A DNA stretch of 64,000 nucleotides from Platanthera guangdongensis. Taxonomy: Eukaryota; Streptophyta; Magnoliopsida; Asparagales; Orchidaceae. The stretch is taken from assembly GCA_039583875.1 (NCBI GenBank), contig CM077163.1, positions 111,361,213 through 111,425,212 of the forward strand, given 5' to 3'. The position numbers and the translations under genes are program-made. Shown here one piece after another: positions 1 through 64,000 of the stretch (position 1 is its first letter; each line of letters starts with the position of its first letter). The notes under the pieces are model-generated. The model did not search any database. It saw nothing but the letters and a program-made list of their open reading frames with translations, and was not told the DNA's origin.

Positions 1-650
1 GGCAGGCTGGGCTTGGGTGCTTCATCAAGTTTACCCCCCATAATAAAGAAGAATATACTTTCTACTCCCAAAAAGTTTATCACTGCTAAGGGTAAAGAAA
101 AACTAACTGAAAAACCCAGGTCAGAAAACAAGTCAAATCCCCTAGACAATAGAAACAGAAAATAGAAGAAAGCTGTTAAAAACCAAGTTCAGCAGAATTC
201 GTCGAACTTAGCTCGACGAAATCCTGCAAGATCGTCGAACCCCGATCGACGAACGCTGAACGCAAACTTCAGAAATAATTATTCGTCCTACTGCGATCGA
301 CGAACTGTGTATGGTTCGTCGAGCAGAGGTCGACGAACGAGGGACACAGAAAATGACCATGGTCATTCATTGAGTGGAGGTCGACGATCTCATCCCCATT
401 CGTCGAACTCTGGTCGATGAACTTACAATAATTCGTCGATCCCAGAACGACCAAATATAAATAATTTCTCCTATAGAAATTTTAAAACAGCTAACAAGAC
501 ATTTAATCCAGTAGCTGATTGGATAATCCCACCTAGGAGATATCACCCTCTAGGGTATAAGTCTCAACCTGCATTATCAGTCATTTCTAGTTTTACTTTT
601 CAGCCAAACCAAGGACCCATGGTAACCTGGGTCAAGAACAATTGAGCTTT
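1..650 (+). pseudogene. gag C-terminal / gag-pol linker remnant of element A
   Basis: This stretch precedes the protease, where the end of Gag belongs. One frame is mostly open and reads Ser/Arg/Asn-rich, because the repeated TTCGTCGA and TCGACGAA words at about 198-440 encode S-S-N and R-R-N like tripeptides. A TAG near 164 and a TGA near 418 interrupt it. No zinc knuckle is visible; it would lie upstream. The basic character would suit nucleic-acid binding, but that is inference. The final 100 bases, up to the LDSGCS protease motif, carry another stop. Confidence 0.5.
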
Positions 651-658
651 ATTGTTTA

Positions 659-1180
659 ATGCAGGTACATGTGAAGAGCTGTCCAAGGCTAAGTCAGACA
701 TGGTACCTGGACAGTGGCTGCTCCAAGCACATGACTGGCAGCAAAGCAAATCTCTCCAACTATAAGTCCAAGCTAGGACCAAAGGTGATATTTGGAGACT
801 CAAAGAGTGGTCAGTCAGAAGGGTATGGAAGAGTAAGCATTGGAGCAGTGACCTTCAAAAAGGTGACATATGCAAGAGGACTTAAACATAACCTTATATC
901 CATAAGTCAATTATGTGATGAATTTTATCAGGTACATTTCAACTCTACCTCTTGTTCTATTATAAATGATAAAAACCAAACTGTTTTAATTGGACTTAGA
1001 CAAGGAAACATATATTTTGTAGATTTCATTTCTGCCACAACTGATATTTGTTTACTCAATATCACTAGTAACCAAAATGAGCTATGACACAAAAGGCTAG
1101 GACATGTAAACCTTAAGAACATATCTAGGTTATCTAAAGACAACCTTGTTAGAGGTTTACCTTCTGGTCCCTACAAGAAG
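659..1180 (+). pseudogene. Aspartic protease and GAG-pre-integrase domain, element A
   Basis: The retroviral-type aspartic protease that cuts the copia polyprotein. The active-site block WYLDSGCSKHMTG is visible about 18 residues into the open stretch, with the catalytic Asp in LDSG. The pre-integrase zinc region follows: LGHVNL is visible after the open frame ends at 1087, where a tryptophan codon of the usual LWHKRLGH motif has become TGA. The next 100 bases continue the domain before a frameshift near 1165-1180. It is the N-terminal part of the same polyprotein as the integrase downstream. Confidence 0.85.
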
Positions 1181-2069
1181 GAAAGCCTATGCAACGACTT
1201 GTCAACTAGGCAAGCAAACTAAAACTAGCTTCAAATCTATTAGTAGAAGTGATTCACCCAGGATATTGTATCTGCTTCATGTGGATCTTTTTGGACCCAT
1301 TGCAGTATAAAGCCTAGGAGGGAAGTCTTACACCTTAGTTATTGTTGATGATTTCTCCAGATTCAGTTGGGTAGCCTTACTGAGAGCTAAGTCAGATACA
1401 TTCAAAGTTCTTACAGATTTTCTCAGGACCATACAGATTGAGTTCTCTACTCATGTTGCATTGATCAGAAGTGATCATGGCACAGAGTTTGAGTCTCTTC
1501 TTATGCATGAGTTCTGTGAGAAGGAAGGTATCAGGCAGTGCTTCTAAGCTCCTAGAACTCCCCAACAAAATGGGGTTGCTGAAAGGAAAAATAGGACACT
1601 CATTGAAGCTGCAGGTACATTGTTAGCAGATGCTTACATGCCTCTATCCTTTTGGGCAGAAGCTGTAAACACAACTAACTATGTCCTGAACAGATGTCTT
1701 ATATATAAACTAAGACATAAGACCCCCTATGAATTATTTAAAGAAAAGAAACCTAAAATCACTTATTTTAAAGTTTTTGGTTGCATATGTTACATACACA
1801 CTAATGACAAAAGATACATTAGAAAATTTGAGGCTAAGGCTGAAGAAGGGATTTTTCTAGGATATTCCCAAGTAAGCAAGGCCTATAGGGTTTTCAACAA
1901 ATCATCCCTTAAAATTGAAGAATCTGTCCATGTATCTTTTGATGAAGCTAACATGTCTTATAAGGAGAAAGACATTTCTACCAATAGTCTTTTGAAGGTT
2001 TCACCACTATGTGAGTCTATGGATGGACTAAACCTTACCCAAGAGGTTCCAACTCAGCCCACTCCATAG
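1181..2069 (+). pseudogene. Copia integrase core, element A
   Basis: DDE integrase that inserts cDNA into the genome. DLFGP (first catalytic Asp, near 1285), SDHGTEF (second Asp, with Asn to His next to it, near 1475) and QQNGVAERKNRT (catalytic Glu, near 1570) are all readable. The C-terminal segment at 1620-2069 is open and holds the usual FGC and IFLGYS motifs (copia GKGYSV-type region). Stops lie near 1308 and 1545 and a frameshift near 1165-1260, so no integrase can be made. It is the middle of the element A polyprotein. Confidence 0.85.
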
Positions 2070-2225
2070 GCTGCTGAAGATAGTGAAGAGGAAATCTAAG
2101 AGGAAGTAACTGAACTTCCATCAACATCTAGTACCATTCCTCAAGAGGAATTATTTACAGAAGCTGTTGCTCAACCAACTCCACAAACTGATCTTGTCAC
2201 ACTTAGAGATCACCCCAGATCTCAA

Positions 2226-3845
2226 GTGATTGGGGACATTTCAGTTGGTGTACAGACAAGACATCAGCTCAATCAAGACTTGATGCATGCCTGTTTTCTC
2301 TCTCAAATTGAACCTCTCACCATCCATGAAGCTGAGCAAGATCCCCACTGGATTCTTGCAATGCAAGAGGAACTAAATCAGTTTGAGAGATGTAGAGTTT
2401 GGGATTTGGTTCCAAGACCCCATAACTACCCAGTTATTGAAACCAAATGGGTCTATAGGATCAAATTAGATGAACAAGGGAACATAGTAAGGAACAAGGC
2501 TAGACTGGTTGCCAAGGATATAGGCAAGAAGAAGGAATAGACTATGACCAAACCTTTGCCCCTGTTGCAAGGTTGGAGGCCATTAGAATATTCCTAGCCT
2601 ATGCAGCGTACAAAAAGTTCAAGGTATTCCAGATGGATGTTAAGAGTGCCTTTCTGAATGGTGTACTTCAAGAAGAGGTTTATGTAGAACAACCTCCATG
2701 TTTTATCTCTCTAACTCAATCCTCTTATGTTTACAAATTGCATAAAGCTCTCTATGGTTTAAAGCAAGCTCCAAGAGCTTGGTATGAGACCCTAGCTAGC
2801 TTTCTTTTAGAGCATAAATTTACAAGAGGAACCATAGATAAAACCCTTTTCACTAGACATCATAAGGACCAAATCTTATTGGTACAAATATATGTGGTTG
2901 ACATTATTTTTTGGGTCTACTGATCCCAAATTGTGCCAGAGGTTTGCTGACCTCATGCATTCCAGATTTGAGATGAGTAGCATGGGTGAGCTTTCCTACT
3001 TCCTTGGTCTCCAAGTGAAGCAGCTCCCTGATGGTATCTTCCTCTCCCAATCTAAGTATGCTAAAGAGCTTATTAAAAAGTTTGGGATGAGTGATGCCTC
3101 AGGAATAAAAACACCTATGCCTACCAATGCTGTTGTGGATTCTGATGCAGCAGGGAAACCTTTAGATCAGAAACATTATAGGGCAATTGTTGGATCCCTA
3201 TTATACTTAACAGCTAGCAGGCCTGACATAATGTTTGCCACATGCCTTTGTGCTAGATTCCAAGTGAATCCTAAAGAATCTCATCTTATTTTTCTAAAAA
3301 AGATTTTGAGATATATAAAGAGTTGTCCTAGTTTAGGACTCTGGTATCCTGCAGAGTCAGAATTTGAGTTAACTGGATACTCAGATGCTGACTATGCTGG
3401 ATGTAGAGTGGACAGGAAAAGTACCTCTGGAACTTGCCAGTTCCTGGGTATGAGACTTGTCTCTTGGTTTTGCAAAAAGCAGACATCTGTGTCTACATCA
3501 ACTGCTGAGGCAGAGTATATGACTGCTGGTAGCTGCTGTTCACAGATGCTATGGATACAAAACCAACTCAAAGATTATGGTATCAACTTAAATAATTCAA
3601 CCTTATTTTGTGATAATACAAGTGATATTGCTATAGCTCAGAATCCAGTTCATCATTCTAGTACTAAACATATTGAAATAAGACATCATTTCATTAGAGA
3701 TAATGTGGACAAAAAGAAAATTAACTTGATCCACATTCCTACTGATCTATAGAGAGCAGATATCTTCACCAAGCCTTTGGATGAGAAAACCCATCCGTTC
3801 TTTATAAATCAACTGGGAATGATTGATGGAGAGGAGTTAAATTAA
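2226..3845 (+). pseudogene. Reverse transcriptase and RNase H, element A
   Basis: RT_2-type copia reverse transcriptase in two fragments (2226-2540 and 2573-2923), then the RT end and RNase H (2892-3752). [12 protein letters not shown] and [12 protein letters not shown] are typical copia blocks. The catalytic YVDD reads YVVD (Asp to Val at 2897-2899), and one extra T in the following T-run shifts the frame at about 2905-2912. RNase H shows SDADYAG, STAEAEY and the terminal block ending in RADIFTKPL, with CAG to TAG at 3750-3752. The polyprotein would end at the TAA near 3844. Dead enzyme. Confidence 0.9.
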
Positions 3846-4243
3846 TTTCTGTCTGCATTCGACGAATTTTCTAGAGTTCGTCGAACGGAGTTCGACAAAT
3901 TAGGGAAAGTTTGAGAGATTCTCGTCGACCGAAGATCGACGAATTCTCTGTGTGGAAACAATTTTCGTCGACCGGAGATCGACGGACCTTGCTTCAGAAA
4001 CAATTTCGTCGAACGGAGTTTGACGAACTGTTTTCAATTCTTCTGAATGGGTTCGATGAACTACTCACCTGTAACTTATTTCGTCGATCTCAGTTCGAAG
4101 ATCTGTCTCTTTTCGTGGAACGGAGCTTGTCGATTCATATTCTGAAAATCTTATATCTAGGTTTTCTTCGACCTCTGTCCCGCGCTTTCAGTTCCTTTGC
4201 TCTTGATCGCCATTTTCTCTGTGATTATCTTTGCAGGTCATCA
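3846..4243 (+). promoter_or_regulatory. Pol to env-like spacer with inverted TCGACGAA words and a 3' splice-site match
   Basis: A 400-bp spacer filled with TTCGTCGA/TCGACGA words in both orientations (for example 3858, 3877, 3925-3980, 4006-4025). Just before the env-like ATG a pyrimidine-rich stretch ends in TTTGCAG at 4230-4236, a good 3' splice-site match 7 bases upstream of ATG 4244. A spliced subgenomic RNA, as retroviruses use for env, would place this ORF first. The acceptor is seen; its use is inferred. Confidence 0.45.
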
Positions 4244-6959
4244 ATGGCGATTCCTCCAGGAGCAATTGCGGCGATGAAGTTTGATGCAGCATTCTCCATG
4301 GACTTTGAGTCCTTCCAACATTCCGATCCAATTTTTCTATATATCCTTGAATTACTTGAAGAATTGCATCTCAAGGATTTCATGACACGCAGCATCAAGC
4401 TACACTCAACCGAGATAACAGAATGGGTGTACACTGCCACAGTTTCGGAAGACGGAAATCTGACAGGAAATATTGGAAACACTGCCGTTTCCCTATCCCC
4501 AGCAGTACTCTCTAAAATTTTTGGACTGATCAATGGGGAAGACAACTTGAAAATGGATGCTGAGGAATAAGCTGATATGTTGAAAGTCATGGGTTTCTCC
4601 GGAAACAACCCTAATAAGCTTCTGAAGAAACAACTGTCAGCCGCCTATCTATTTTTGGCCGACATTGTAGGGAAAATTCTGATGGGCAAGCACTCGGCAC
4701 ATGACTATATCACTCGCCATCAATTCCTGATCATGTGCACAGTGCTCAACAAGCATCAGGTCGATTGGGGCATGGTTTCCTTTGACCTAATCAAGAAGAG
4801 AACTAGCAAGAAGGAAGTCTGCTACGGCAGAATCCTGGGGATTTTCCTCCAGGAAAAGGCCAGTGAATGTTTGGTCTCCCCGACCACATTCATCAATGCC
4901 AGCAAGCGCCTCACCTGTGCCTTATTTGGCCGATGGGAGAGGACAATCACCAAACCCTCCAAGGGTTCCTCCTCCTCCATCAATGCTTCTGAGAGCACCA
5001 GGACCGTCAAGGTCACTCCCCACCCTGACACTGAAGAGGCCATTCCACCTACCAAATCTCTTCCCACTCCTCCTGCACCTCAATTGACTCCACCTCAACA
5101 TCAATCTCCACCGCCTGATCTTACACATATTCATACACCTCCAGTTTCCCCCACTGAAACACATATTCCCTCACCTCCTTAATCCCCTCTTCCACCACAC
5201 CTATCCACTATTCCATCCTACACCTTTCCCACTGAACCACAACCTATTCTCCCTCCCTTTTCCGCTCCACATATTCTTCTTTCCTCCTCTACTACTCTTT
5301 CTCCACTTATGGATTATTCCACCATTCCCTCCATCATCTCTCTTCTGACTCCTCTTATTAAATCACTCATCAAGGAGGCCATTACACCTCTGGTGAATTC
5401 CATTGATTCTTTATCTGCCCAAATCTCAGCCGTCTCTGCTGCCCCCTCTTCATTCAGGGGCCTGGCTCCAGGTTCTCCTGAACCCAGGCAGGGGGAGATG
5501 CTCCATGATGAAGATGGTGCAGCAGCTGCAGAAGTGAATACAGTTGATACAGATACAGATACTACAGATACAGTTAATACAGTGCTTGATAATGCAGTTA
5601 CAGATACAGCAATTGATTTTACTCAATTCATGGACACTGACAGTAGCTTTGATGAGTCAGTAGATTCAATAACAACTGCTGGTGATTTCCTTATAAATCC
5701 CATAGTTAATTTATCTGAGATACTTAATATCTTTGATCCTGTATATATGAAGCTTCCTTCAGTAGAGGTTGCTAAGCCATATTTGGCTATTATCCAGTAT
5801 ACCTCTCCAGCAAGTCCAGCAGTTTCCAGGCAACTTTGTGACACCTTTGCTGCTCCTACTGCTGTTCCAACTCCTGTGTCTATTCCAGAAATCTGCCATG
5901 TCCCAGATTTTGTCATGGATGATTCTCCCATGCCTGATCTGGATGAGCTCATTCTGGCAGACATTGAAGAAGAGAACAAGGCAGCAGCTGCAAGTTCTGT
6001 CTCTACTGCTGTTGAACCCTCACCCTCTGAACCTTTTATCCCCCCTCAAGAAAAACCTCTTATCATTCCTGATGCCACTTTGAGGAAGTTGAATGCTTTG
6101 TATGACAGCCCTCAGAGTTCTGATTCTGAAGATGATGATGATGATGATGAATTAGATGAGGAGGCTGCTAAAAAGAAAAAAGAAGTTGCTCTCTAAGAAA
6201 AGGAAGGCTCCTCCTCCTCCTACTCCCAAGCCTAATCCCACTGCAGACACTCCATACTATATTCTGCACAATGTTGCTCCTTACAAAGGGATGCCTGCAT
6301 GGATGTGGCTATCAAAGAACCAGCAAAAAGAGAGGAAGAGGAGTAGGAGATACTCTCCTCCCCCAGTTCATAGATACAGAAAGGATCCTCCTCCTCCTCC
6401 TCCTCCAGCAGCAGGTGCCTCTGGCTCTAGCTCTCAGAGATCTGCTCCTATTCAAACTTATCAGAGACAAACAGGGAGATACTCTGGTGGCAGTCAGCCA
6501 AGGCCACCATCTTCAGGCAGACAACAACATCCTCAACAACAGCAGCACCACCAGGAATCTAAGGAAAATGAAGTTGAAAGGCCTTATTCCCCTCCTGAAG
6601 ATCCAGAAATAGCCAACACAGCCAGAATGGCAAGGTTCCAAGAGATCATTGGCTTATCTCTAATCAACAAAGCTAAAGCTGAAGGCAAGGACACAACAGG
6701 CTTAACTACTATGTCTCAGTACAGGAGAGATGAACTAAAGAGATTTGGGAAAGCAAACAAGCTACTCAATGTTGATAAGTACATGCATCTTCACCCAGAA
6801 GCAGTTGTCCCCAAAGCCACTTCACTGAACATCATAGGGGTAGCTGACATGACTATGACCAAGGCTCAAGCTTCAGATCCCAATATTGAAATCATTTTCA
6901 AGAAGCCAGGAGATAAAGCACCAGAAGTCAAGCCAAAACAAAAGAAATCAGAGAAGTAA
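4244..6959 (+). pseudogene. env-like ORF of SIRE-type element A
   Basis: The extra ORF that SIRE-lineage elements carry between pol and the 3' LTR. It is one frame from 4244 to about 6190, cut by TAA at 4568 and 5180, then shifted by an A-rich run (about 6168-6188) into a frame that stays open to 6959. The first 300 residues resemble the plant transposon-protein domain annotated in such ORFs. A Pro/Ser/Thr-rich stretch follows (5040-5300), then an acidic Asp run (about 6130), a basic Lys/Arg segment and a Pro/Gln-rich region. I see no convincing signal peptide or transmembrane helix, so an envelope role is doubtful; a nucleic-acid-binding accessory protein fits the composition as well. Confidence 0.65.
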
Positions 6960-7138
6960 TTTTGTGTTTTATTTTCATTTCTGCTTCTGTTTCAGTCTAT
7001 ATCTTGCATTAAAACAAAGCCAGTATGTATATATATATCTGTTACATGTGTTATAAATTCTCTGCCAGATATATCTCTTAATTTTGCTTTGTTTTTCCGT
7101 TTGTTCTTTGCTTGGAGTTTCTGTTAGTGACCTCACCC

Positions 7139-7152
7139 AAATAGGGGGAGAT
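7139..7152 (+). other. Polypurine tract of element A
   Basis: An A/G-rich block with five consecutive Gs ends directly before the TGTTGG that opens the 3' LTR. This is the standard plus-strand primer position. The 180 bases between the env-like ORF and this tract are AT-rich 3' untranslated sequence with a short TA run near 7027. Confidence 0.8.
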
Positions 7153-7620
7153 TGTTGGATCCCTAGTAGATTTGGGCTCGGTTCACTAACTTAGGATGTG
7201 ACCCATCTTGTATAGTCTGGGTCACGTTTTTGTCTTAGAGTCTAGGACAGTCCTCTATCTCAACTTCAGATGGACCAGCCTTCTTCAGGACCATCAGGAA
7301 CTACAGATCTATCAGTTTTTTTCAGACGAAGTGAAAAGAGTTCGACGTTCGTCGAACTCAGCTCGACGAAGGAAGTTCTGCGCTCGACGATCGTGAGACA
7401 ATTCGCAGTGTTGAGCTCGACAAACTGCGTTCTTTGCTCGACGAACACCGGGATTTTACCTCAGGCTTATCAGGACCACTTCAAAATTTCTCTAAGTCCA
7501 GCTTCATGCTTCGGTCGACGAATTATATTCCGAGCTCGACGAACTTGGACCTCATGTTCACAGCTTCTCAGGTCGACGAATGCTAATCTCTACTCGAAGA
7601 TTTGTGTACTCAGAGAATCT

Positions 7621-7762
7621 GTGTCGACACTTAGGGCTTGTGTCGACACCAGGTGATTTGTGTCGACACCAGGATTTCAGTCGACACCAGCTTATGTCGA
7701 CACCAGAGGATTTGTTTCGACACCAAGATCAATCTGTCGACACCAATTTGTGTCGACACAGC
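7621..7762 (+). repeat. TGTCGACACC minisatellite in element A LTR
   Basis: About eight copies of the palindrome-containing unit GTGTCGACACCAG, spaced 14-22 bases apart with variable filler. It lies in the U3 half of the LTR between two TCGACGAA clusters and shares the core TCGAC with them. The regular spacing resembles a CRISPR array only superficially. Confidence 0.85.
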
Positions 7763-7891
7763 ATTTCAGCAGGTGCAGAATATATCGTCCAAGTCCAGAA
7801 CTTTTCTCAGCTCGACGAATTTGGTTCTCTGCTCAACGAATAATGTTTGTCTGATATTGAAGATTGTCTATTCAACGAATGAAGACTGTCA

Positions 7892-7955
7892 GCCCGACGA
7901 ACTCAGCTCAGCTCGACGAACTCAGCTCAGCTCGACGAACTCAGCTTAGCTCGAC
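7892..7955 (+). repeat. 19-bp tandem repeat of CGACGAACTCAGCTCAGCT in element A LTR
   Basis: Three head-to-tail copies with a period of 19 bases (CGACGAA at about 7894, 7913, 7932 and 7951), with degenerate copies continuing to about 7985. This shows the family word of element A spreading by local tandem duplication. Confidence 0.85.
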
Positions 7956-9049
7956 GAACTCTTAACTCAGCTCGAAGAATTATGTTCTTCGGTCGACGAT
8001 TCCAGACTAGGTATTCTTCCGTTCCCGTCTCATTCTATGGCACTGATTCCTGGAGAATTAATGGCAGTTCTTCACAGTATACTACTGTTAGGATGCGCAG
8101 TTAATTCTGGATTATTACATGCCTTTTCCCATGGAAACAGTTGGGGAAATAATTAATTGCTGCTTCCTTTCCAGGCCGTCTGTCATTACTGCTCGATATT
8201 AAAAATTCGAATGTTTTCTATGATAGACAGAGACATACAGAGATAGTCAGTAATACAGAGATTCACAACAGACAACAACAAGAAAAAGATAGACAGTGAT
8301 TCAGACAACACAAGAAAAAGAATTCATTCTTGGCCCAGAGAGAAATTGATCTAGAAGAAGAAGAAGAACATTACATCAATATCAAGAGTCTTCTTCATCT
8401 GCTTTTACTCAGGATAACTTCAAAAACAATACCTTCTTATCAGTTACAAGAATTCCTGAAGACTTTCTCTGGACTTGGAATTCTAGGTCTTTGAAGACCT
8501 ATCACCCTGAAGCAGTGCTCCATCATTCTTCCTGATCCATTCTACATCTCAGGGGGAGCAAAGCTGCTAAACAACATTCCACAAGTCTTCTCATTTGACT
8601 TGAGAAAGAGAAGACCTCATCACCCTCTCACTCCACCTCTGTACAGGGTTTTAATTCCCTTCAAAATTATTCTGTTGCAAGTCTCCCACCAAAAGACTTG
8701 AGGGTTTGGTTTTTGGGAACCTGATCAAAACCCCATTGGTGCCAGGACACCTGATCAACCCCTTCCTGCAGTGGATTCCTACCAGGGTGGTAGAAGAGTG
8801 GACTACCCAGATTTGGGGAACCACTATAAAATTCTTGTGTCGTCTGGTTGCTTTCTTTTCCTTTTGTTTTCTGGCCTTGCTCTGTGAATGTGCTGTGATT
8901 AGTCCATTGCTGTTTTTTGGTTTATTGTATTTGCTTACCTGCACACACACACACTTAAAATACAACAGCAGTTGTAAAAGTTTTAAAATCACCATATACT
9001 CTATTCACCCCCCCCCCTCTAGAGTATATCAGATCTATCTGCACTTTCA

Positions 9050-11463: not shown

Positions 11464-12218
11464 TGTTAACCCCTTAGTCCGCAACATCCTACAAGATGCT
11501 AAAACCCCCCTTTCAACACTCGCGGACTCGATTTGGCAGTCCGCCCAGTCCGGCAAGGTAACCAATCGGCCACCAAGGATGGTACCCCAGCAGCGGACTC
11601 AAGGATCTGTTTTCTCAGTATGCCACGACTTGGGATATCAGATTCTCTACAACGGCGGACGCAGTGTCTCGTCCGCCCAGGCCGCCGCCCTTCAGCAGGA
11701 TCACGCCCAGCAATAGTGGAAGCTCTAGTCCGCGAGCCCAGTCCGCCCCTTCTGCGCGGACTGGCGTGTCCTTTTCTTTTTGCTTCCCGTCACAGCTGCC
11801 CGGTTCTCCTGTACCCCGGGCAGCAGGTTATTTTAGCCCAGCCCATTTGGGCAGGCCCCCTATCATATAAATAGGGGGGAGGTGGTGCACCCAAGGCACG
11901 CTGACTCGGACCCAGGAGCCTACTTGTTACAGGCTGCAGACTCGAATCTTGTGCCTTGCGGACTCCCCCTCGCTCTTCTCTTGTCAAACTTTTCCTTTAA
12001 CTTGTAACCAAGTCTTTCTTCAATTAAGGGAAAGGCCGTCGCAAGAGAGGCATTCAGGCTGCGACGGGTGAAGTCTGTTATTGTCGTGGCTCACAGCCCT
12101 GCTATTCTTCCTGCCCTCACCCGCTTAGTAGATCACTACTCGTAGTCTCTCTATTCCCCGGTGTTCGAACCATTAGCTGGTGGTGCCCGACTCCCCTTTG
12201 TGTTTTTGTGCATCAACA
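11464..12218 (+). repeat. 5' LTR of Tat element 1
   Basis: It runs from TGTTAACCCC to CATCAACA and repeats at 23994-24748. A TATAAATAG box at 11866-11874 marks the promoter. It contains many GCGGAC/GTCCGC words (for example near 11522, 11541, 11594, 11656, 11672). No convincing tRNA primer site begins right after 12218; the bases there (GTTAACACGTGACC) do not start with TGG, so the site is degraded or unusual. Confidence 0.9.
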
Positions 12219-52921: not shown

Positions 52922-53042
52922 GCACTCTACTTCACAGTATCTTTTTATTGTTATTATGTAATGCTTATCATCCCGATGTGCTCTCTTGGTGGAAGTGTGG
53001 GTGACCTCTGTGAGGCACCGGGGGCGAGATGCTTTGTAGAAA

Positions 53043-54325: not shown

Positions 54326-54892
54326 GGGAGGACGGTACTCACTTGGGGAGACAAGTCTAAGGGTAAGAATTCGCGTGGAGAAAAATCCATGACTCAGCAA
54401 GAGAGGGATAGTCCCTGAAACAGAGAGTGACCAGGAATAGGGCCAGGGAAGAAGGTCCCTGGCCGGCACTCGCCATAGCGGGTCTCACTACGGGCGGGAG
54501 GGTTTTCCCCGTCCCAGGATCAAGTAAGCTGAAGTGGCTGAAGCCGACTGGCGAGACGACTGGACCCAGAAATTTGGTGGCGAGGTAATCTCGCGGCGCA
54601 GCGCCAACGAAGGTAATCAAGACGGGTAAAAAACAATAAGGGATGCCTCGCGCGGGTCCTTAAGCGAAATGGAAGGTCAAACTGGCGATTAAAATAACAT
54701 ATAAAAAGGTACCCCCTAAATAAACTATTACACAGCACCCCAAAAGGGGAAGCGGCCATTAGTATATAAAAAGTTTAAACAAAAGTTAATAGGGCAGAGA
54801 CACCTCGCCCTTCTTTTAAGAAAGGGAGCCAGAATCATAAGTGTTCGACAAAAATAAGAGGGCGCAAGGAAGACATGGCGGGGGATGGTGCA
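54326..54892. other. Noncoding region after the 86-bp array
   Basis: About 570 bases without supported genes. It carries GGCGAGAC at 54549 and several CTCGC/GGCGAG relatives, and ends downstream of the antisense gene's stop codon, so it may be that gene's 3' untranslated region. Nothing else is recognised. Confidence 0.5.
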
Positions 54893-56804
54893 CTACTCAT
54901 TGTCAGAGGAGGCGCTGCTGTCCGACTCGTCGAACAAGCGCGGGACTAGGTCGCGGACGGTCACCGTCTCCGCATCCGCGCGCACCACCCCCAGCTCCTT
55001 CATCATCTTAAGGACAACCTCCGCTGTCTTGATGTTTGAGTCCCGGCAGATGGCCTCCACCTCATCCACGGAATATCGGGAAGAAACGGGAAACTGATCC
55101 GTGGGGGGCGTCGCGCTGCTCTGAAGGCGAAGGTTCTCGGCTTTCAGCTTCTTGTTTTCCCCCTCCAGCTCCTCGATACGCGAGCGCATCCTGTTCGCCG
55201 TCTCGGCATCCTGCGGGAGGGAGGAAGGTAGGAGACTATGAGGGGCATGGGCGAGGCGGGCAAGGCAAAGATAAGGAAACTTACCACACCACCCTGGCTC
55301 TGTGCAAGGAGTTTGTCAGCAACATTCAACCGCTTCTCCAAGTCAATAGACTTCTCGCGCTCCGCGGCAAGACCGGTCTCCGCCTCTTTCCATTTCCTGT
55401 TGTTGAAGACAAGACGGCGCGAGACGCGATGCGCGAGCTCCAGGGAGCGAAACTGCGAGTGGACGCTTTTCAGAATGAGATCCCGCGAGGCCTCGTTGTC
55501 AGCGGGTTCGGAGCCAAGACCGCCATAAAGCCCGAAGCCTAGCGAAAAGGCGTGGCCGGTGGGATGGTCCTGTTCCTTCCAGGAAGGGAGAAGGGTGGAC
55601 ACCGACACTCGGTTGGAATCCTGCTCCCATATTAGAACCGGCTCGCCGGCGTCATCCTCCGTCACGGGCCCCATGTTGTAGTTAGGGTGTGAGGCGGGAG
55701 CCGGGCGGCTCGATGAGCCAGTTTCGCCAGGAGGAGGCTGAGGGGGCTGAGCACGACCGTGGGCGGCTGGTTCTGCAGAAATCGTCTCGCGGGTTGGCGA
55801 GACGGGCTGACGAGGAGGCGAGGGAGACGATAAGGTGATAGGTGAAAGAGACCCCTCGAGCTCTTCTCTTCTCTTGGCCGGCTTTTCCTTCTCGAAGGAC
55901 ACAGTCTTTTTCTTCTTCTTGGGGCTGAGGCGGGAGGTACCCTCGCCTGTAGGCCTCTTCTTGGCGACAGGGGTTAGCGTATCTTTCGCAGCCTCCGCCG
56001 CCATATTCGCTAGAGCGAGAGCTCGATTGCTCTGGTAGGGGGGATTGACGGGAACGGTCCTTTCTCCTAGAAATGGTAACAGTGAGCGGGAGAAAAAATT
56101 TTTACAGGGACAGAAGGGAATAGAGGTTTACCTTCGCCCGGAAAGACGGCAGGCAGCGAGTCCAGGTCTCGCCGCAGGTATTGGACTTCAAAATTCTTTC
56201 CCACGAAAAAGTCGCAGAGTTCCTTTTCGGCGCCCCCCACCTTGGGGGTATCGTAATAGCACTCGGCAGGGGATACCGGGGCGAGGGGGATGCCTCCTAG
56301 ATCCCCGCGTATGAAGACAAACCGTGTCAACCAATGATGGTTCTTGTTTGGGGTCTCGCATACTTTGAGGCCTTGACCTGTGAAGTAAGAAATGCCGTCG
56401 TCCTTGGCGTGGTAGACAAACAGCTTGCGGAAGGCGGTTAGACTGAACTCGATGCGCTCTCGCCGCAGGTAGCAAGCGAAGGCGACCAGCATGGAGATAG
56501 CATTGGGGTTGAACTGGGCCGGGACGACCCCAAAGTACTTCAGCACCAATTTAACCTCTGGCCAGAGGGGGAGCCTCAGTCCCGCCTCAAAGTGCGAGAT
56601 CGGGAAAGCCAGCTCATTGGAATAAAAGGTGTTGATGCACTCGCCCACCTTAGGCGGGCGAGATGGGTAGCAATCGGAGAGGTACTCGCGAGCAAAGCGG
56701 GCGTGGTCTTCCTCCGGCAGTCGGCCAAGAGGGAAGTCATGGTCGACGAAACGTTTCCCGCAACGGCTGCGGCCCTCGCCCTCTTCGATCTTCTTTTTCC
56801 CCAT
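54893..56804 (-). CDS. Antisense gene B of Tat element 2: three-exon Transposase_28-like gene, apparently intact
   Basis: Exons 56804-56132, 56066-55285 and 55210-54893. The introns (65 and 74 nt) have GTAAAC/TTTCTAG and GTAAGT/TCCCGCAG ends. Phases match exactly (1, then 0), giving about 590 residues with no stop. The ATG at 56804 lies in AACCATGGGG; another in-frame ATG is at 56891. A TATAAATA box sits at 56943-56936. The protein has an N-terminal helical domain like Pfam Transposase_28 (LKYFGVVPAQFNPNAISML, WLTRFVFIRGDLGG), a KKKKK basic block, a Pro/Ser-rich linker, STLLPSWKEQ, and C-terminal coiled coils (RSRIEELEGENKKLKAEN) with an acidic end. Function is not established. An accessory protein expressed from the opposite strand is likely. 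Confidence 0.85.
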
Positions 56805-56935
56805 GGTTGGCGAGACAGCGGTGAAAGCAGAAAGGGATGGTCCAGAAAGAGAGGCGCGAAACGATGAAGGAGGAACAGGAGCCGGGCTCAAAAGGACAGC
56901 TTAGAATATTGAGGGGCAGCGGTGGTGGTCGAAGG

Positions 56936-56943
56936 TATTTATA
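56936..56943 (-). promoter_or_regulatory. TATA box of antisense gene B, Tat element 2
   Basis: TATAAATA on the minus strand, 132 bp upstream of ATG 56804. The intervening sequence would be a leader of about 100 nt. An identical box precedes each of the other three antisense genes in this window. Confidence 0.7.
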
Positions 56944-57318
56944 AGAGGTAGAGAAAAGAGCGGGAAAGCAAGGCGGCGGGAAATGAGGGGACGTCCCGGC
57001 GCCTCGTTCTCTCCCCCGCTCTCTCTCTCTTAATTTCACTTCCTCTCTCACTCTCTCTCTAGAACTCAAGAGACGGAGGCGCCGCAGACACCCTTTCGAG
57101 GCAAGCAATCATTGCAGGATTAATAGAATGATAAAATAAAACAATATCTAATCATGGCAATAATGAAAAGACGGCATGATGCGACCAAAAGTCAAAACGA
57201 AAATCGTCCCGCAGAAGGGGGCGTCTCGTCCGAATAAGTTTGTACAAACATAGCAGTGATAAAACAGCGACATTAGTAAAAAACGAGATCCGGAGAAGGC
57301 GAGACGGGCTGAGACTGC

Positions 57319-58259
57319 TTAATTCCGCACCCACCGCCAGCGGCCATCCTTACCTCCCGCGCATGGCGGGCGGCCAGGGAGATGAAAGGCGCGAGCGGCG
57401 ATCACTCCGCGGCGCGCGAGACGGAGATGTTCATCCGTCTCGTTCAGTATAGCCTGGGGGTCAGTCCCGTCCAGCACCCCGTCCGCCTCCACCATCGCGG
57501 AAAGGCGGTGATGATCTGCTTCCATCCACTCCATGCGCCGGTCGGAGGCTTGCTTCTCGAGCTCCATCTCGCGGATTATGTGTGTGTATTTGCGGAACAT
57601 CCGGGCAGTCCTCCGTTTCAACTCCAGAGGGTCCATGGGATCACCTAGGTAGTCCTCGATCTCGCTCGGATGAGGAAGGGGCGAGAGGGGGGGAGATGCG
57701 GGAGCTTCCTCAGTATCAGAATCGAAATGGATACCTGCGAAAATAGTGAAAGGTTACAAACAAGGGTGACCCGCGCAAGCCGAATGGAAGAAGGCAAATC
57801 AACCGAGAGGCAAGAGGGAAAAAGATCTTACTTGGGATTCGAGGATTCCCCACCACTCGCGAGAGGTCTTCTCTTCGCGAGGGGGGTGGGGAGGCCATCT
57901 TGGGCGAGTCTGTGCGCTGAGGGACTTGACTTGCATTGTCATGGGGATCGGCAGGCACCTGCGAGTCAGCAGGACTTCCCTGAGAAAGCATAATCAGACA
58001 GGCGAGACAGGGGAAAGGAAAAATAACGTGATCACCTGTCCCCCCCCCCTGAGGAAGAGAACGGGGTGTCTATCGGAGCGGCCGAAGAAGTTGCACTCGC
58101 CGAGAGAGGGGCGCAGGCGGCTTTCGCTTTCTTGGTGCGAGAGGGCGGAGAGGCTGCGGGGGGAGTGCGCCCCAGATCTGGGAAAAGGGCATCTGTGCCG
58201 GACTTGTTCTGCCTCCGCACAATCGCAAGACGCTCACGGAAACTTTGGTTATGAGACAT
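57319..58259 (-). pseudogene. Antisense gene A of Tat element 2: three-exon basic/coiled-coil protein with a G-run frame break
   Basis: Exons can be placed at 58259-58036, 57979-57832 and 57734-57319, with intron ends GTGATC/TTTCTCAG and GTAAGA/TTTTCGCAG. A TATAAATA box at 58320-58313 lies 54 bp upstream of the ATG. Exons 2 and 3 are open and in phase. Exon 1 is open too but leaves the wrong phase into exon 2; a 10-G run (58040-58049) at its end is the likely site of the slip. The protein starts MSHNQSFRERL, is Pro/Ser/Lys-rich, and ends in a coiled coil (MFRKYTHIIREMELEKQAS). No family is recognised. It corresponds in place to antisense gene A of Tat element 1. Confidence 0.65.
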
Positions 58260-58312
58260 TCCAGAAGAAAGGGGGAATGCAAAAAGTGTTCCAAATGAAG
58301 GCTTACCCCCCA

Positions 58313-58320
58313 TATTTATA
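58313..58320 (-). promoter_or_regulatory. TATA box of antisense gene A, Tat element 2
   Basis: TATAAATA on the minus strand, 54 bp before ATG 58259 and about 120 bp inside the 3' LTR boundary. It faces into the element, opposite to gag-pol. Confidence 0.7.
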
Positions 58321-58420
58321 GGCAGTACGGGGAAGGAGGGGCCCACCCAAGATTCCCACAAAGGAACCTTAGCATCGCGAGCCATGGTTGGACTTATCTT
58401 TCCGAGGTTAGGGCAACCTC

Positions 58421-58437
58421 GAAAAGAGCGGGGATTG
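58421..58437 (+). other. Polypurine tract of Tat element 2
   Basis: GAAAAGAGCGGGGATTG directly precedes the 3' LTR, the normal plus-strand primer position. Confidence 0.75.
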
Positions 58438-59121
58438 TGTACAACCTGGGGCTCGCGAGAGACGGTCCAGCGGGCGAAGGGATGACTGGCGAGATGATAG
58501 GATGCCCACCTACAGGGGGCGAGAGGGGGGATCCTCTAGAGTGGGCGAGACCTTCTAGTGGGCGGAGTCACCCTAGAAGGCGAGAGAGCTCACATGCCGG
58601 AAAGGCGGCGAGACGGGCATGGCGGCCGTCTCGCCCGGCAGTACCTCCCCCACTCGCCGCAGGAGACTAACAGCTCTTTACCTATTTTGACCCATAAGGG
58701 GGATTTTTACCTTTGGGCCCCAGATGGTTTTACATTTTTACCCCTGGAGGCCTGCGTATAGCTCTCCAGAACAGCGGAGTTGGGCTATTAGCAGGCCCGG
58801 TCCAGGGTGTTTTGGTCATTTCGAGATGGTTTGAAAGTGATATTTGCAGAGCAGATTCAGAAACCTATAAATAGACCGATAAGGTGCCTGAGAAAGGGTG
58901 GTTGAACCTTCCCACTTTTTCCCTCTCAGGCACCTAGCTCAACACTGGCTAGGGAGGGGAAGACTAACAGTTCTTCCGGGTAAGAGGCGGGACCTCCAAG
59001 TTGAGTCCCCTCGGTCTGTTTCCAGGTCGCTGAGTCTCGTCAGGGCGGTAGCGCAAGGAGAGTACGTGTGGGCTGCATCCTGTTTCGAACTCTAGGAGGG
59101 ACCGAAAAGCCGGTTCCAACA
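58438..59121 (+). repeat. 3' LTR of Tat element 2
   Basis: Same length as the 5' LTR; I see about eight substitutions (for example near 58794, 58806, 58820, 58830, 58900, 58926, 58958 and 59035). TATA box at 58866-58874. Followed by the CCATT target duplication. Confidence 0.95.
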
Positions 59122-59160
59122 CCATTGTTGAATGAATTCTTTAGTTGAGGATCGTGGCAA

Positions 59161-59170
59161 ATTGATACCA
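59161..59170 (-). other. tRNA-iMet primer binding site of the chromovirus
   Basis: The minus strand reads TGGTATCAAT two bases after the LTR end at 59173; the first eight bases match the canonical initiator-Met site. It fixes the orientation of the chromovirus. Confidence 0.8.
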
Positions 59171-59172
59171 TT

Positions 59173-62100
59173 TGTAAGACCCCCCCTCCCGGATCCCACG
59201 GAGGGGGGTCTTATGCCCGGAACAGCCGCCTTGCGGTAGCATCAGCACACGGCCTAACCTGTACCACAAGACGCCTATTCCGCCGGCTACAACCAATATC
59301 AATATATACATGCCAACACAACCATAATATAAATAGAGAGAGAAGACAATCCACACTAAGCATATAGTCCAAATACATCAAATAAGAGAAGCTAAAACAT
59401 GCTTCTTCAAGATCAGAGTACAACTATGAAATTGCCCAACCAGGATACATTAGAGTCTCACAACACTCACATCCATAACCGATGGTAGGGACGGTACCGT
59501 CACTTCAGGCCCTGTCGTCCTGGTTGGCTGTCCTGCTGCAAGGTCTGCAACTGCTCTACCTACGGGGTAACCTCCTAAAAAAGGAAGACGTAGCAACCAT
59601 TAGTCGAAAAGACTAAGTGGCTTCACATCCTCTCCCCAGCGACTCCTCGGCACAGGGCGGAGAAAAGAGCAAGAGTACAAGTATAATAAATGGTATAATA
59701 GGTACAAGTAGGTGGTGATGGTACAATAAGATTAATAGCATTATATTCTAGCAGTTCCACTTAAGCAATAGTAATTCAACAAGTACAAGTAATTACAACA
59801 GGTAAGTAACTTAACTTATAAGGATGACCATACAAACTTATAAGTTAAGGATCGGTTTGCATAAAGTAACTCATCGTATAGGAGTGCCCATACAAACTTA
59901 TACGATGAGGATCTTGTTGTGCAATGCAATGAAATGGTATGTATGCTATGCAATGACTCACCCATGATCACACCATGCAAACGCTATGTCAACATAGACT
60001 AGTAGTTCCCACTATTCGAGCAGGTAACTAACCTCTCAGGCATCAACCGTCATGGCCAGACGGTGACAGTAGAGCGGCCATGTCTACAACTAGGCGAGTA
60101 TCCACACTACTTCTCCTAGTCCTCTGTACGCCTCAATGCTAAGAATACAATAGCGAAGCCCATGGGTACTATGGCCCAGCGGGGTCTCGGGTAGATGTGC
60201 AACGAGAAAACAGCCCGAACTGGCCTGGTGTGACCCGGAAGGGGCCTCAGAAGAAAGCACGAGGACACATCCCAACAGTTCACTTGACACTGAAGGGGCC
60301 TCGGGACGTGAACACCGAGGACACAACCCAACCGCCCAAAGTCTAACTGTCAACTCCCATCGGTGTGACGATCGGCGAGCCCTTAGACCTGCCACACTAT
60401 CCTTAACCTAGGATTACGATACCGCATGTCGACTCACACCACATGCAAATTCCACAACACCGTGGAATGGAAGGGGCCACAGAAGTAAGAATGAGGACAC
60501 AGCCCAACCATCCACTCGGCATGGAAGGAGCCCCAGGATGTGAACACCGAGGAGCAAGCCCAACCGCCCGTCTATACCTCATCTTAACACTAACCTAACT
60601 AGTGATAGTCAACACCGAACTTACATCCTTCCACAATACTACCTGTAGGGAGACTACACTCTAAGTATTGGACTACTAAATTTCATTCCAACCATCAAAC
60701 ATACTCATGGCCATAGTTTATCCTTCTATATGTCATTCCAAATGATTTCAGCATAATATAACATAATGCGCATATGTAACAGTCTACCAATTTCTAACAA
60801 GTCATTTGTTTAAGTAAGCTTGCATCACAATTCAGTTATATGAAATCCAAATGGTAAACTTCATCATTCATATCACTATGGTGGTTAACATAAAATAGTT
60901 CACCAAAGTCTCGAGTTAATTTGCAACATCGATTCCACCGAATCCAAATCCATATTATATAAAAGAAACCCAGAATTTAAGTGCAGAATAAATCTGGATA
61001 GCAATTTCAACCGGAGATTTCCAAAGCTACATGAATCCGGTGAAGGCGTGCTACCCCTCGATGGAAAGGCCTTTCCATGGGTTACAACTTTCATATTCAG
61101 CCCACAACCCAGATTTGAGTGTATCCTATTTGAAATCGGCTTCAAAATCCGCTGCACACAGAACACAATTTCTGCATGCAGGTTTGCCGGATGTCAACTT
61201 CGTCTAGACCTTCCCATGGCTATAGACTTTGCCTGAAGTCATGCAACCAATCGTTGGAAAGGTATTTTCAAGGGCTTCAACTTTCATGTTCAGTAGACAG
61301 CCCAGATCTGGCATATCACACCTGAAAATGGCCGTGAAGCTCACTACGCGTAGAACACAGATTCTCCACGCAGCTTAAAGAGGAATAAACGGCATCGGTT
61401 CATCTCCCTCCTCAAGTTGGTCTTCCAAAATCACACCAGGAATTCCTCCTCCCTTATTCACCCTCATGAGGCCATGATTCTTCACAAAACCATCCCCCGT
61501 CTTCGCATAGAAGGCTGGAGAGTTTGAAGACACCACTAACCTTAGAGCACAAGCCCTAAAACAGCCTCTTCCTAGAGAAATCACCATCTCACTAGTCTAG
61601 ACTCTTTTGAGTCGACATATCATATAAAAATATACAGATCTAGCACCAAGGGAGAGGGGGAGGAAGCTAACCTCATTTCTGGCGTTTCCACTATTTTCGG
61701 CCATGGATTGTGTAACTCTTCTCGGTGGCATCTTCTCCTTCACGGTGGCGGCGGATCTCCTCCTTTAGAATTGGCTAAATCAACTTCCTTCTCTCAACAG
61801 GAGTTTCTCTCAGAAAATAGGGGATGAAATGAGCATGAGAACGGCTAGGGTTTTCTCTTCCCCTTATATATAAAAAGTGACACTGGTAGTGACACGCCCT
61901 TGTCCTTACCCGTGTCCTGCTTGGTCGAAATGGCAACGACAGTTTCCGTGTCGGTTCAATACTTAACACGTGTAGGGACACGCCCGCGTCCCGACCCGTG
62001 TACACATGACACGGTCGTGTTCCCTGGACGTGTCCATCTCTGGATACATTTTGACGAACTCAACTCCACACAACGATACCCGGGTAGGGACACGCCCGTG

Positions 62101-62763
62101 TCGCTGCCCGTGTCACACAATTCGTCGATCTCGACACGTAGTTCGCCGATCTCGATACGCTCTGTCGAGTATAACTCGACACACATGGGTAGTGACACGC
62201 CCGTGTCGCTACCCGTGTCATACGATGTCGACACACCTCGTCGATATCGACACATCCTGTCGACTGTAACTCGACACACACAGTTAGGGACACGCCCGTG
62301 TCGCTACCCATGTCATACGATGTCGACACACCTCATCGATCTCGACACGCCCTGCCGAGTGTAACTCGACACACATGGGTAGGGACACACCCGTGTTGCT
62401 ACCCATGTCATACGATGTCGACACACCTCATCGATCTGGACACGCCTCATCGAGTTCAACTCGACGCACACGCACACGGGTAGGGACACGCCCGTGTCTC
62501 TACCCATGTCACCTCATACGGGTAGTGACACGCCCGTGTCACTACCGGAGTCCTTCTTGGACATACTCGAGTCATTGACTTGAGAGCCGGCCACTCCCAC
62601 ACGGGTAGGGACATGCCCGTGTCTCTACCCGTATCCTATGCTTGACTGATTTTTCCTCCTTTTCACATGTGCTGCCCTATTGTTAGCACTCCCCATGAAC
62701 CCTAGTCAGCTCCCCTGACTCTAAAACACGCACGAGGGGCCTAGTGCGATTCGGGATGTTACA
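59173..62763 (-). repeat. 5' LTR (minus orientation) of the chromovirus
   Basis: Pairs with 38891-42415 along its whole length, with frequent substitutions and small indels. On the minus strand the TATA box is at 61870-61862, with the palindrome cluster at 61880-62640 upstream. The stem-loop pair recurs at 59811-59909. Small ORFs inside are not supported. Confidence 0.9.
61880..62640. repeat. GACACGGGT/ACCCGTGTC palindrome cluster in the right chromovirus LTR
   Basis: The same type of units as at 41640-42290, with one or two more copies (phrases beginning near 62083, 62187, 62283 and 62375), so unit number differs between the LTRs of one element. TCGTCGA and TGTCGACA cores lie in each spacer. 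Confidence 0.85.
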
Positions 62764-63769
62764 ATGAGGAGGATGAAGAAAAATATGGATGGCATGGGTT
62801 GATGGCAATGTCTGCAGAAGAAAGAAGTCAGGAAGAATCAGAATCAATCAAGGTACAATCTCTCTCAAATTCTGTATCTTTCTCTTATTTTGAATCCAGT
62901 CCAGATACTGGTACATATTCATCCGGTTATGAAGATTACTATGAATCTATGACTGATGTCAATCAATTGATTGATAAGTTTGGACTTCTCCTAATTGCTC
63001 TAAAGGAGAGCAGAATACTTGCCAAAAGGCAAGTCAAGGAAATAGAGGTCCTAAATCCTTATAAAACTCTCTATAATAATAAATCTATTGAGTTTTATAA
63101 GAGAAGTCATGAGATGTCTGAGCTCAAGAAAAATCTTGAGTGTCAGACCATGCTTCTAGAAGAAAAGAAGAAGCACATCAGATATCTGGAACAAAAGTTC
63201 TCATAGTTGTTGGGGATTTCTCAGTCACAGGGTTAGTTCCCAAAAGCTACAACTTGGCAAGTCCCTAAGAAGCTGGGTATTAACCACATCAATTACCATT
63301 TCAAATCTGATTTCCCTAGTAAGAGGACAGTGTTTTAGAAGGCAAATACACCTTCTAAAACTGTCAAGTTTGCACCACTCCAGAAGGATCAATCAAATGT
63401 GTGCTCCACCAGTGGGGTGAATGCACATGATCCAAGAAAGAGTGACACTGTCCACTCTAGCCACAAAGTTCAGGAGAAGATCTTTAGATTTGGATCCAAT
63501 TATCCTCAATCTAAGGAAATGAGAATGTCCACTAGATGGCAGGCTCCAAAAATACATCAGGACCATTTTGGACAAGCTGTATTTAGTTCCTCAGCACCTT
63601 CACTCAGGAAGAAGGGAGCAACATCATGTAATGCTCATCCAGCAAAGTCTGGTGTTGATCACATCTCTCATGCACAGCAAGCTGTGCTGTCCTAAAGTGA
63701 AGGTACAAAATTCATAATGTTGGTGCTATGGGAAAGTGGGTCACTATGCCATTGATTGTTCGCATAACC
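62764..63769 (+). pseudogene. gag of element C, C-terminal part
   Basis: It resumes at the second ATGAG copy with an acidic segment, then a coiled coil (TDVNQLIDKFGLLL, ILAKRQVKEIEVL, YLEQKFS; open at 62799-63206) that matches element B's Gag. After stops near 63204 and 63338, the sequence continues to a zinc knuckle-like GKVGHYAIDC at about 63728-63757. It is cut at 63770 by another insertion. Nonfunctional. Confidence 0.8.
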
Positions 63770-64000
63770 TGTCATAACCCGCATTTCCTCAACGAGCATA
63801 TCGTATCAGAGCAAGAGGAACTACGGGTTATGATGCCACGTCATGCAGGGGATAACTGCACACGCTCAGGCAACTCTTGACGCTTACTTTACAAGTTGAA
63901 ATTCAACAGTTACATGCACGCAAACGTTTGGATTAAATGGCCGTATCCCTCGGCCTTAGATATCAAAACACATATGCACGCGGCGGAAATCCTTTATTTA
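63770..64000 (+). mobile_element. Element D: start of another LTR-type insertion in element C's gag
   Basis: The gag homology stops after CGCATAACC, and a new sequence starts TGTCATAACCCGC, an LTR-like TG terminus of the kind found in plant gypsy elements. It continues to the window end without an ORF. The preceding five bases are TAACC. Family and orientation cannot be told from 231 bases. Confidence 0.5.

What the first reader, a model, noticed from the sequence alone, without database searches (positions are those of the whole stretch)
1..64000. Each retroelement family is filled with its own short word on both strands
Seen: element A has TCGACGAA, Tat 1 GCGGAC, Tat 2 GGCGAGAC, the chromovirus GACACGGG, and B/C GCTGAGAC, each repeated in both orientations in LTRs, linkers and tandem arrays. 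In the two Tat elements pol is nearly free of the word. Known: in VANDAL transposons, VANC anti-silencing proteins bind short family-specific motifs that multiply in noncoding DNA. Inference: the words may be binding sites for element-encoded accessory proteins (antisense Transposase_28-like or env-like), that is, a self-recognition system in retrotransposons.
Basis: partly seen in the sequence, partly recalled or inferred. Interest (0 to 1): 0.82.

Follow-up and report, generated by a model that had tools for sequence, protein, structure and literature searches.

The report
Retrotransposon families with private DNA words
Some jumping genes in this orchid-like DNA carry dozens of copies of their own short DNA word outside their enzyme genes, probably docking sites for a DNA-binding protein; this is known for one group of such elements and seems to occur here in a second group too.

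Summary
Tat 2 is moderate (1 of 100 resamples reach it), the chromovirus marginal (5 of 100; 1 forward, 21 reverse copies). C beats all 100 only while its 9-bp tandem copies are counted (47 of 100 without them); B's octamer is array-borne. Pol is at background.

A, B and C are Sireviruses, where symmetric repeated boxes in the LTR and upstream of the env-like gene, forming CpG islands, were described in 2010 (PMC2829016). A matches and adds a cluster in frame in the gag tail. Its inverted half-sites recur at 15 bp beyond random placement, without compensatory changes, and are CpG-rich in a CpG-poor element (3 CpG in 3,395 bp of pol). This favours recognition at DNA level over RNA stems or neutral duplication.

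Tat 1 and Tat 2 are Retand-like (Ty3/gypsy) and carry antisense Transposase_28 ORFs (28-30% identical; RT and INT about 67%, gag 39-41%).

A VANC-like, element-encoded binder is possible but untested. Other copies could not be examined: the genome search did not complete.

The parts
1..9049 (+). Element A: Sirevirus (Ty1/copia), 5' part outside the window; 3' LTR 7153-9049 (end inferred from CA and polyC signal, no 5' LTR to compare), PPT AGGGGGAG+AT at 7143-7152
   Evidence: RVT_2 E 1.6e-11; sequence read, compared with PMC2829016
184..450 (+). A word cluster 1: gag tail; words in one codon phase, reading Arg-Arg / Ser-Ser
   Evidence: 8 exact words in 1-460, all in the same phase; dyads at 198, 231, 282, 315, 366, 399, 432 and codon counts
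3846..4243 (+). A word cluster 2: linker between pol and env-like ORF
   Evidence: 6 exact words; dyads at 3877, 3921, 3964, 4005, 4038, 4080, 4112; CpG o/e 1.69
4244..6959 (+). A env-like ORF, broken by stops and a frame change; no words
   Evidence: ORFs; Transposase_32 E 0.0049 on 4571-5182, below cutoff; Platanthera relative P0012 E 3e-5, below cutoff too
7330..8010 (+). A word cluster 3: U3 of the 3' LTR, mostly direct half-sites; 19-bp array 7889-7979, GTCGACAC array 7620-7759
   Evidence: 10 exact words, 9 of them forward; spacings; CpG o/e 1.34 vs 0.17 in 8011-9049 and 0.35 in 7153-7329; arrays
11464..24748 (+). Tat 1: Retand-like Ty3/gypsy; LTRs about 11464-12218 and 23994-24748, 93% identical; TSD ACTAT/ATTAT
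   Evidence: gag, RT, RNase H, integrase domains
18451..23993 (+). Tat 1 pol-3'LTR region with GCGGAC words, including the 136-bp array 18451-18973; words also in both LTRs (10 each) and in 12223-12900 (6)
   Evidence: region table; array
20598..21323 (-). Tat 1 antisense Transposase_28 (TRP28) region
   Evidence: PF04195 E 6.2e-8 on 20652-21188; tblastn to Tat 2 ORF
46399..59121 (+). Tat 2: Retand-like, young (LTRs about 98.7% identical), TSD CCATT both sides, inserted in the chromovirus
54333..59121 (+). Tat 2 word zone (GGCGAGAC) downstream of the array, and 3' LTR
   Evidence: z 7.3, 1/100 resamples
56067..56900 (-). Tat 2 antisense Transposase_28 ORF (277 codons, stop to stop)
   Evidence: PF04195 E 4.1e-9; 11 homologues at E <= 0.001, all named Platanthera
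38891..62763 (-). Chromovirus with about 3.5-kb LTRs (38891-42408 and 59173-62763), TSD ATGAG, interrupted by Tat 2
41600..42300 (-). Chromovirus GACACGGG/ACACGG zone incl. 95-bp array 41833-42162; copy in the other LTR 61860-62660
   Evidence: marginal outside the array
29900..31000 (-). B (Sirevirus, minus strand) LTR word zone: TGAGAC words largely in 53/62-bp arrays, plus TCGACGAA words 30494-30743
35900..36420 (+). C (Sirevirus, plus strand) LTR word zone, GCTGAGAC; signal depends on 9-bp tandem copies
   Evidence: 0/100 resamples with them, 47/100 without

Best explanation
In A and Tat 1, and probably Tat 2, the words are repeated-motif boxes: many copies of a short sequence that is read as double-stranded DNA by a sequence-specific DNA-binding protein, placed in the LTR and near the accessory gene. 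Shown here: enrichment, element specificity, position; in A also pair geometry, absence of compensatory changes and CpG retention. Inferred: in A a dimer binds TTCGTCGA-N7-TCGACGAA, spaced half-sites in U3 act as an enhancer, and the internal clusters serve a second promoter (env-like ORF in A, antisense Transposase_28 ORF in the Retand elements). Because the elements use different words, the reading proteins must differ or have shifted specificity. I think a host transcription factor is the likelier reader in the Sireviruses; in the two Retand elements the element's own Transposase_28 protein is a serious candidate. The words of B, C and the chromovirus owe most of their copies to tandem duplication and are not strong support.
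For: Enrichment beyond order-3 composition in A and Tat 1 (0/100 resamples each) and Tat 2 (1/100); 19 of 24 exact A words and 49 of 51 Tat 1 words have distinct flanks. A: the divergent 15-bp bin holds 9 pairs vs a null maximum of 6 in 500 placements; of 16 half-site pairs listed at that distance, 0 show a compensatory change. Consensus reaches beyond the octamer (C at -6, G at -2). In the gag tail 12 of 16 Arg codons are CGA and 11 of 17 Ser codons TCG, against 1 of 24 and 2 of 99 in the other A ORFs counted, which suggests that the DNA word rather than the amino acid is kept. CpG o/e 1.3-1.8 in the three clusters vs 0.02 in pol, 0.17 in env and in the rest of the LTR. Topology (LTR U3 + upstream of env + CpG-rich) equals the Sirevirus RM boxes of PMC2829016.
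Against: Pair geometry is shown only in A; in Tat 1, Tat 2 and the chromovirus spacing is not beyond the placement null. C's enrichment vanishes when 9-bp tandem copies are taken out; B's octamer too. Words are not more conserved than controls between the two LTRs of Tat 1 (9 of 10 kept; controls 59/83 and 59/105) or of the chromovirus (5 of 13 and 5 of 9; controls 161/473 and 161/453), though divergence after insertion should be neutral. No other copies of a family from elsewhere in the genome were seen. No binding data.
Confidence: 0.58

Rival explanations
1. VANC-like self-recognition: an element-encoded accessory protein (Transposase_28 in Retand, env-like in Sirevirus) binds the family word and removes silencing marks from its own family only.
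For: Both Retand elements carry Transposase_28 ORFs, 28-30% identical against about 67% for RT and INT, while their words differ. PMC11963269 (part 1 and passages) reports predicted DNA binding for this domain and cites nuclear localisation of the maize Grande antisense protein. CpG retention in A extends to CpGs outside words of up to 2 mismatches (13 of 382 dinucleotides in gag tail+linker vs 37 of 7,699 elsewhere in A, p 3e-7; U3 7 of 408, p 0.006), as local hypomethylation would give. Precedents: VANC (PMC5735166), Spm TnpA and MURA (named in the Discussion of PMC10398659).
Against: No binding or methylation data. Gag diverges almost as much (39-41%). A and B share TCGACGAA words. The residual CpGs may lie in more degenerate sites. 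One-mismatch words of this A copy are CpG transitions in 7 of 17 cases vs 4 of 24 possible changes (p 0.015), so the words were probably methylated at some time. AlphaFold models of the Transposase_28 ORF were poor (mean pLDDT 46 and 59); Foldseek against the PDB gave no match below E 2.7.
Confidence: 0.2
2. RNA-level hairpins: the inverted words form stems in the transcript (packaging, or a small-RNA source as proposed for maize Sireviruses).
For: A gag tail folds better than shuffles (z -5.1); chromovirus, C and B zones z -2.2, -2.5, -2.6. PMC10760457 (passages) links Sirevirus palindromes to small RNAs.
Against: 0 compensatory changes in 16 listed A pairs; A linker z -1.6, A U3 0.0 and 0.8, Tat 1 zones -1.2, -0.4, 0.1, Tat 2 LTR -1.3 (pol controls -1.1, -0.6); 9 of 10 exact U3 words point the same way.
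Confidence: 0.08
3. Neutral by-product: replication slippage and local composition multiply a word without function.
For: Accounts for B and C and for most chromovirus copies (5/100 outside the array). The 19-, 53-, 62-, 95- and 136-bp arrays hold many copies.
Against: 19 of 24 exact A words and 49 of 51 Tat 1 words have distinct flanks. A CpG-bearing word repeated in three separate places of an element that has lost nearly all other CpGs is hard to keep without selection or protection.
Confidence: 0.14

Closest known systems
Sirevirus repeated-motif (RM) boxes (Bousios 2010, PMC2829016; abstract and parts 2-4 of 7 of the text read)
   Same: High-copy, dyad-symmetric, element-specific motif, mostly in the upper half of the LTR and upstream of the env-like gene, within CpG islands; 8-32 copies per element
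   Different: A's box lacks the CGG-CCG core (so does Tnd-1 in their table), has a 7-nt spacer and a further cluster inside the gag frame. The paper calls the motif Sirevirus-specific; its comparison set was classic Ty1/copia, not Ty3/gypsy
VANDAL/VANC anti-silencing (PMC5735166: part 1 of 6 and passages; PMC10398659: abstract and Discussion)
   Same: Short family-specific motif concentrated outside coding exons, often in tandem repeats; accessory protein of the element
   Different: DNA transposons, with shown binding and demethylation; no VANC relative was identified or specifically searched for here; A's words are CpG-bearing and partly in a coding frame
Retand antisense Transposase_28 ORFs and tandem arrays (Vicient 2025, PMC11963269: part 1 of 5 and passages)
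   Same: Antisense TRP28 ORF between pol and 3' LTR, family-specific arrays, predicted DNA binding
   Different: No dispersed short word in LTR, 5' and 3' regions is described in the parts read
CACTA (Spm/En) subterminal motifs and TnpA (passages of PMC2613891)
   Same: Element-specific short repeats recognised by an element-encoded binding protein that varies between elements
   Different: DNA transposon; motifs subterminal; tied to excision

Membership tests
Sirevirus (element A) | PPT AGGGGGAG followed by AT/TG at the 3' LTR | tested here: met
   7143-7154 reads AGGGGGAGAT|TG; definition
Sirevirus (element A) | copia-type reverse transcriptase | tested here: met
   RVT_2 E 1.6e-11; no tree made
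Sirevirus RM boxes (element A) | symmetric motif, many copies, upper LTR and upstream of env-like ORF | tested here: met
   in U3 mostly half-sites, only one full dyad (7348)
Sirevirus RM boxes (element A) | CGG-CCG core (12 of the 13 RMs in PMC2829016) | tested here: not met
   A's dyad is TTCGTCGA-N7-TCGACGAA; Tnd-1 in their table also lacks the core
Sirevirus RM boxes (element A) | RM clusters coincide with CpG islands | tested here: met
   o/e 1.81, 1.69, 1.34 vs 0.02-0.17 in pol, env and 8011-9049, 0.35 in 7153-7329; formal island caller not run
Retand lineage (Tat 1, Tat 2) | antisense TRP28 ORF between pol and 3' LTR | tested here: met
Retand lineage (Tat 1, Tat 2) | long pol-3'LTR region (2.9-6.6 kb) and LTR 315-1194 bp | tested here: met
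   about 6.2 and 5.7 kb, LTRs about 755 and 685 bp (coordinates); ranges
Retand lineage (Tat 1, Tat 2) | RT phylogeny | not tested
   no reference RTs aligned
VANC-type system | motif concentrated outside core coding regions | tested here: met
   for A, Tat 1, Tat 2; but A has one cluster in the gag frame and Tat words also lie in the antisense ORFs
VANC-type system | element-encoded protein binds the motif | not testable with these tools
   needs gel-shift or DAP-seq
[quoted passage not shown]
   needs methylomes
VANC-type system | other copies of the family share the word | tested here: inconclusive
   own genome unreachable; B and C (about 80% identical in the segments that blastn aligns; 65% in the LTR-region alignment) both have TGAGAC words, 15 in B and 12 in C with 3 at shared positions, but tandem copies weigh heavily in both

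The most novel reading that the evidence does not exclude
Plant LTR retrotransposons of both superfamilies run family-specific self-recognition: each lineage's fast-evolving accessory protein (antisense Transposase_28 in Retand) reads the lineage's private word, which multiplies in LTRs and non-enzyme regions and keeps the family's own regulatory DNA unmethylated, a retrotransposon counterpart of VANC.
Probability: 0.17. Interest if true: 0.85.

Novelty: new variant of a known kind. Interest (0 to 1): 0.52.

Why it matters
Antisense Transposase_28 ORFs occur in 97% of the recently active Retand clusters surveyed by Vicient 2025 and have no known function. A private, countable DNA word in the same element gives that orphan protein a concrete target to test. 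For Sireviruses this adds an orchid case of the RM boxes with an unusually clean signal (CpG-poor body, CpG-rich words) and a box cluster inside a coding frame, which helps to separate DNA-level from RNA- or protein-level selection.

Tried and rejected
LTR-versus-LTR conservation of words: not clearly different from controls, and recognised afterwards as no test of selection, since divergence after insertion is neutral. Fixed pair spacing in Tat 1, Tat 2 and the chromovirus: not beyond placement nulls; Tat 1 one-mismatch convergent bins 17 and 26 hold 5 each vs a 95% null of 6; its direct 9-bp bin holds 8 (null max 9). B and C do exceed the null in a direct 9-bp bin (9 vs max 6; 5 vs max 5), which is tandem repetition. 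Helical phasing of A dyads: mean cosine at 10.5 bp gives p 0.0007, but periods 8.5-10.0 score higher, so I do not claim it. C as independent support: withdrawn after removing 9-bp tandem copies; for this the odds of the main reading went from 0.60 to 0.58, of the neutral rival from 0.12 to 0.14, of the novel case from 0.18 to 0.17 and the interest from 0.55 to 0.52. B/C as one long-inverted-repeat DNA transposon (suggested): rejected; each arm carries gag-like sequence and a Sirevirus-type LTR end, so they look like two Sireviruses in opposite orientation. Structure of the Transposase_28 ORF: models too weak, PDB search without a match. Search for other copies: one search gave one distant viral-contig match (36% over 85 residues, not examined further), none, genome contigs none; the 7 dyad matches in viral contigs carry one dyad each and were taken as chance without examination. 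Host-factor idea that the words share a GAC core (auxin-response or DREB-like half-sites): from recall only, no motif library was available, not used.
Full report
WHAT THE WINDOW IS. The window is plant DNA, probably an orchid: the 15 protein relatives found for three probes (11, 1 and 3 at E <= 0.001) are all named Platanthera zijinensis or P. guangdongensis. It is a nest of elements. Element A (1-9049, 5' part outside) is a Sirevirus with an env-like ORF broken by stops. Tat 1 (11464-24748) and Tat 2 (46399-59121, TSD CCATT on both sides) are Retand-like Ty3/gypsy elements. The chromovirus (38891-62763, TSD ATGAG) is interrupted by Tat 2. B and C look like two Sireviruses in opposite orientation on either side of a stretch with DDE_Tnp_4 and Myb_DNA-bind_3 ORFs (PIF/Harbinger-like, a name from recall).

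WHAT THE WORDS LOOK LIKE IN A. The 24 exact words (19 with distinct flanks) fall in three clusters: gag tail (184-450), the linker before the env-like ORF (3846-4243) and the U3 part of the LTR (7330-8010). In the first two the unit is a dyad TTCGTCGA-N7-TCGACGAA. The divergent 15-bp bin (9 pairs) exceeds 500 random placements (maximum 6). A scan at this one distance, allowing up to 4 changes, lists 16 pairs; none has a compensatory change. Beyond the octamer, C at -6 and G at -2 are conserved (on a site set with some double counting). In U3 the sites are mainly direct half-sites, several 21 bp apart. In the gag tail the 8 exact words sit in one codon phase and read Arg-Arg or Ser-Ser; CGA makes 12 of 16 Arg codons and TCG 11 of 17 Ser codons, against 1 of 24 and 2 of 99 in the other A ORFs counted (RT-RH and three env-like pieces). 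CpG observed/expected is 1.81, 1.69 and 1.34 in the clusters and 0.02 in pol (3 CpG in 3,395 bp), 0.17 in env and 0.17 in the 3' part of the LTR (0.35 in the first 177 bp of the LTR). With words of up to 2 mismatches masked, gag tail and linker still hold 13 CpG in 382 dinucleotides against 37 in 7,699 elsewhere in A (p 3e-7), U3 7 in 408 (p 0.006). These facts favour recognition at DNA level, with selection on the words or local protection from methylation; they do not say who reads the word. In the Tat elements the CpG contrast is much weaker (Tat 1 LTR 0.52-0.68 and 3' region 0.7-0.9 with words masked, pol about 0.46-0.50).

RNA STEMS. The gag tail folds better than its shuffles (z -5.1) and the B, C and chromovirus zones slightly so (-2.6, -2.5, -2.2), but A's linker (-1.6), A's U3 (0.0, 0.8), Tat 1 (-1.2, -0.4, 0.1) and the Tat 2 LTR (-1.3) do not stand out; pol controls -1.1 and -0.6. 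With the lack of compensatory changes, RNA stems are a by-product at best.

THE TWO RETAND ELEMENTS. GCGGAC in Tat 1 sits in both LTRs (10 each), in 12223-12900 (6), and through the pol-3'LTR region, antisense ORFs included. Pair spacing is not beyond random placement, so a dimer geometry is not shown. Both elements have an antisense Transposase_28 ORF (E 4.1e-9 and 6.2e-8). The two are 28-30% identical while RT and integrase are about 67% and gag 39-41%. Vicient 2025 (PMC11963269, part 1 and passages) reports this ORF in 97% of recently active Retand clusters, a predicted DNA-binding capacity, and family-specific tandem arrays. I saw no mention there of a dispersed word; the listings of my ten literature searches showed no paper on one in Retand, which is not proof of absence; I opened eight papers, none whole.

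COMPARISON WITH KNOWN SYSTEMS. For A the match is Bousios 2010 (PMC2829016; abstract and parts 2-4): 13 Sireviruses with a symmetric repeated motif, 117 of 127 LTR copies in the upper LTR half, 77 of 79 linker copies upstream of env, and CpG islands often bounded by the motif. A fits, except for the CGG-CCG core, and adds a cluster in the gag frame. VANC fits by analogy only: neither binding nor demethylation can be tested here.

HOW IT MOST LIKELY WORKS. Shown: specific, CpG-bearing words clustered in the LTR and beside the accessory ORF, with paired geometry in A. Inferred: a DNA-binding protein occupies these clusters, drives LTR transcription and a second promoter for the accessory ORF, and in doing so may keep them unmethylated.

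LIMITS. One copy of most families, no copies from elsewhere in the genome (the own-genome search did not complete in all ten tries), no methylation or binding data, and an A element that is old and broken.

Noticed in passing
31200-35900: PIF/Harbinger-like stretch on the minus strand between Sireviruses B and C: DDE_Tnp_4 (E 6.5e-14, 1.1e-7) and Myb_DNA-bind_3 (E 1.5e-20) ORFs. Ends not mapped.
   Followed up: partly
37256-37592: Foldback (two 168-nt arms, 88% complementary, 1 nt apart) within what looks like the LTR of C.
   Followed up: no
53045-54332: Tat 2 has a 15-copy, 86-bp array, 96% matches, with none of the element's words; its CpG o/e is only 0.37.
   Followed up: no
9450-11463: Minus-strand remains of an env-like Sirevirus ORF (11407-11216 matches A's env-like piece, 34%), cut by Tat 1; perhaps the distal part of B.
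   Followed up: partly
451-3845: A's pol has only 3 CpG in 3,395 bp (o/e 0.02), and B's gag region 7 in 2,371 (0.08): extreme CpG loss in these Sireviruses, unlike gag-pol of the two Tat elements (0.5-0.8).
   Followed up: partly
7620-7759: A second short repeat in A's U3, TGTCGACACC-like, about 7.6 units; GTCGAC is enriched in A (14 seen, 1.3 expected) and weakly in the chromovirus (4, 1.0).
   Followed up: no
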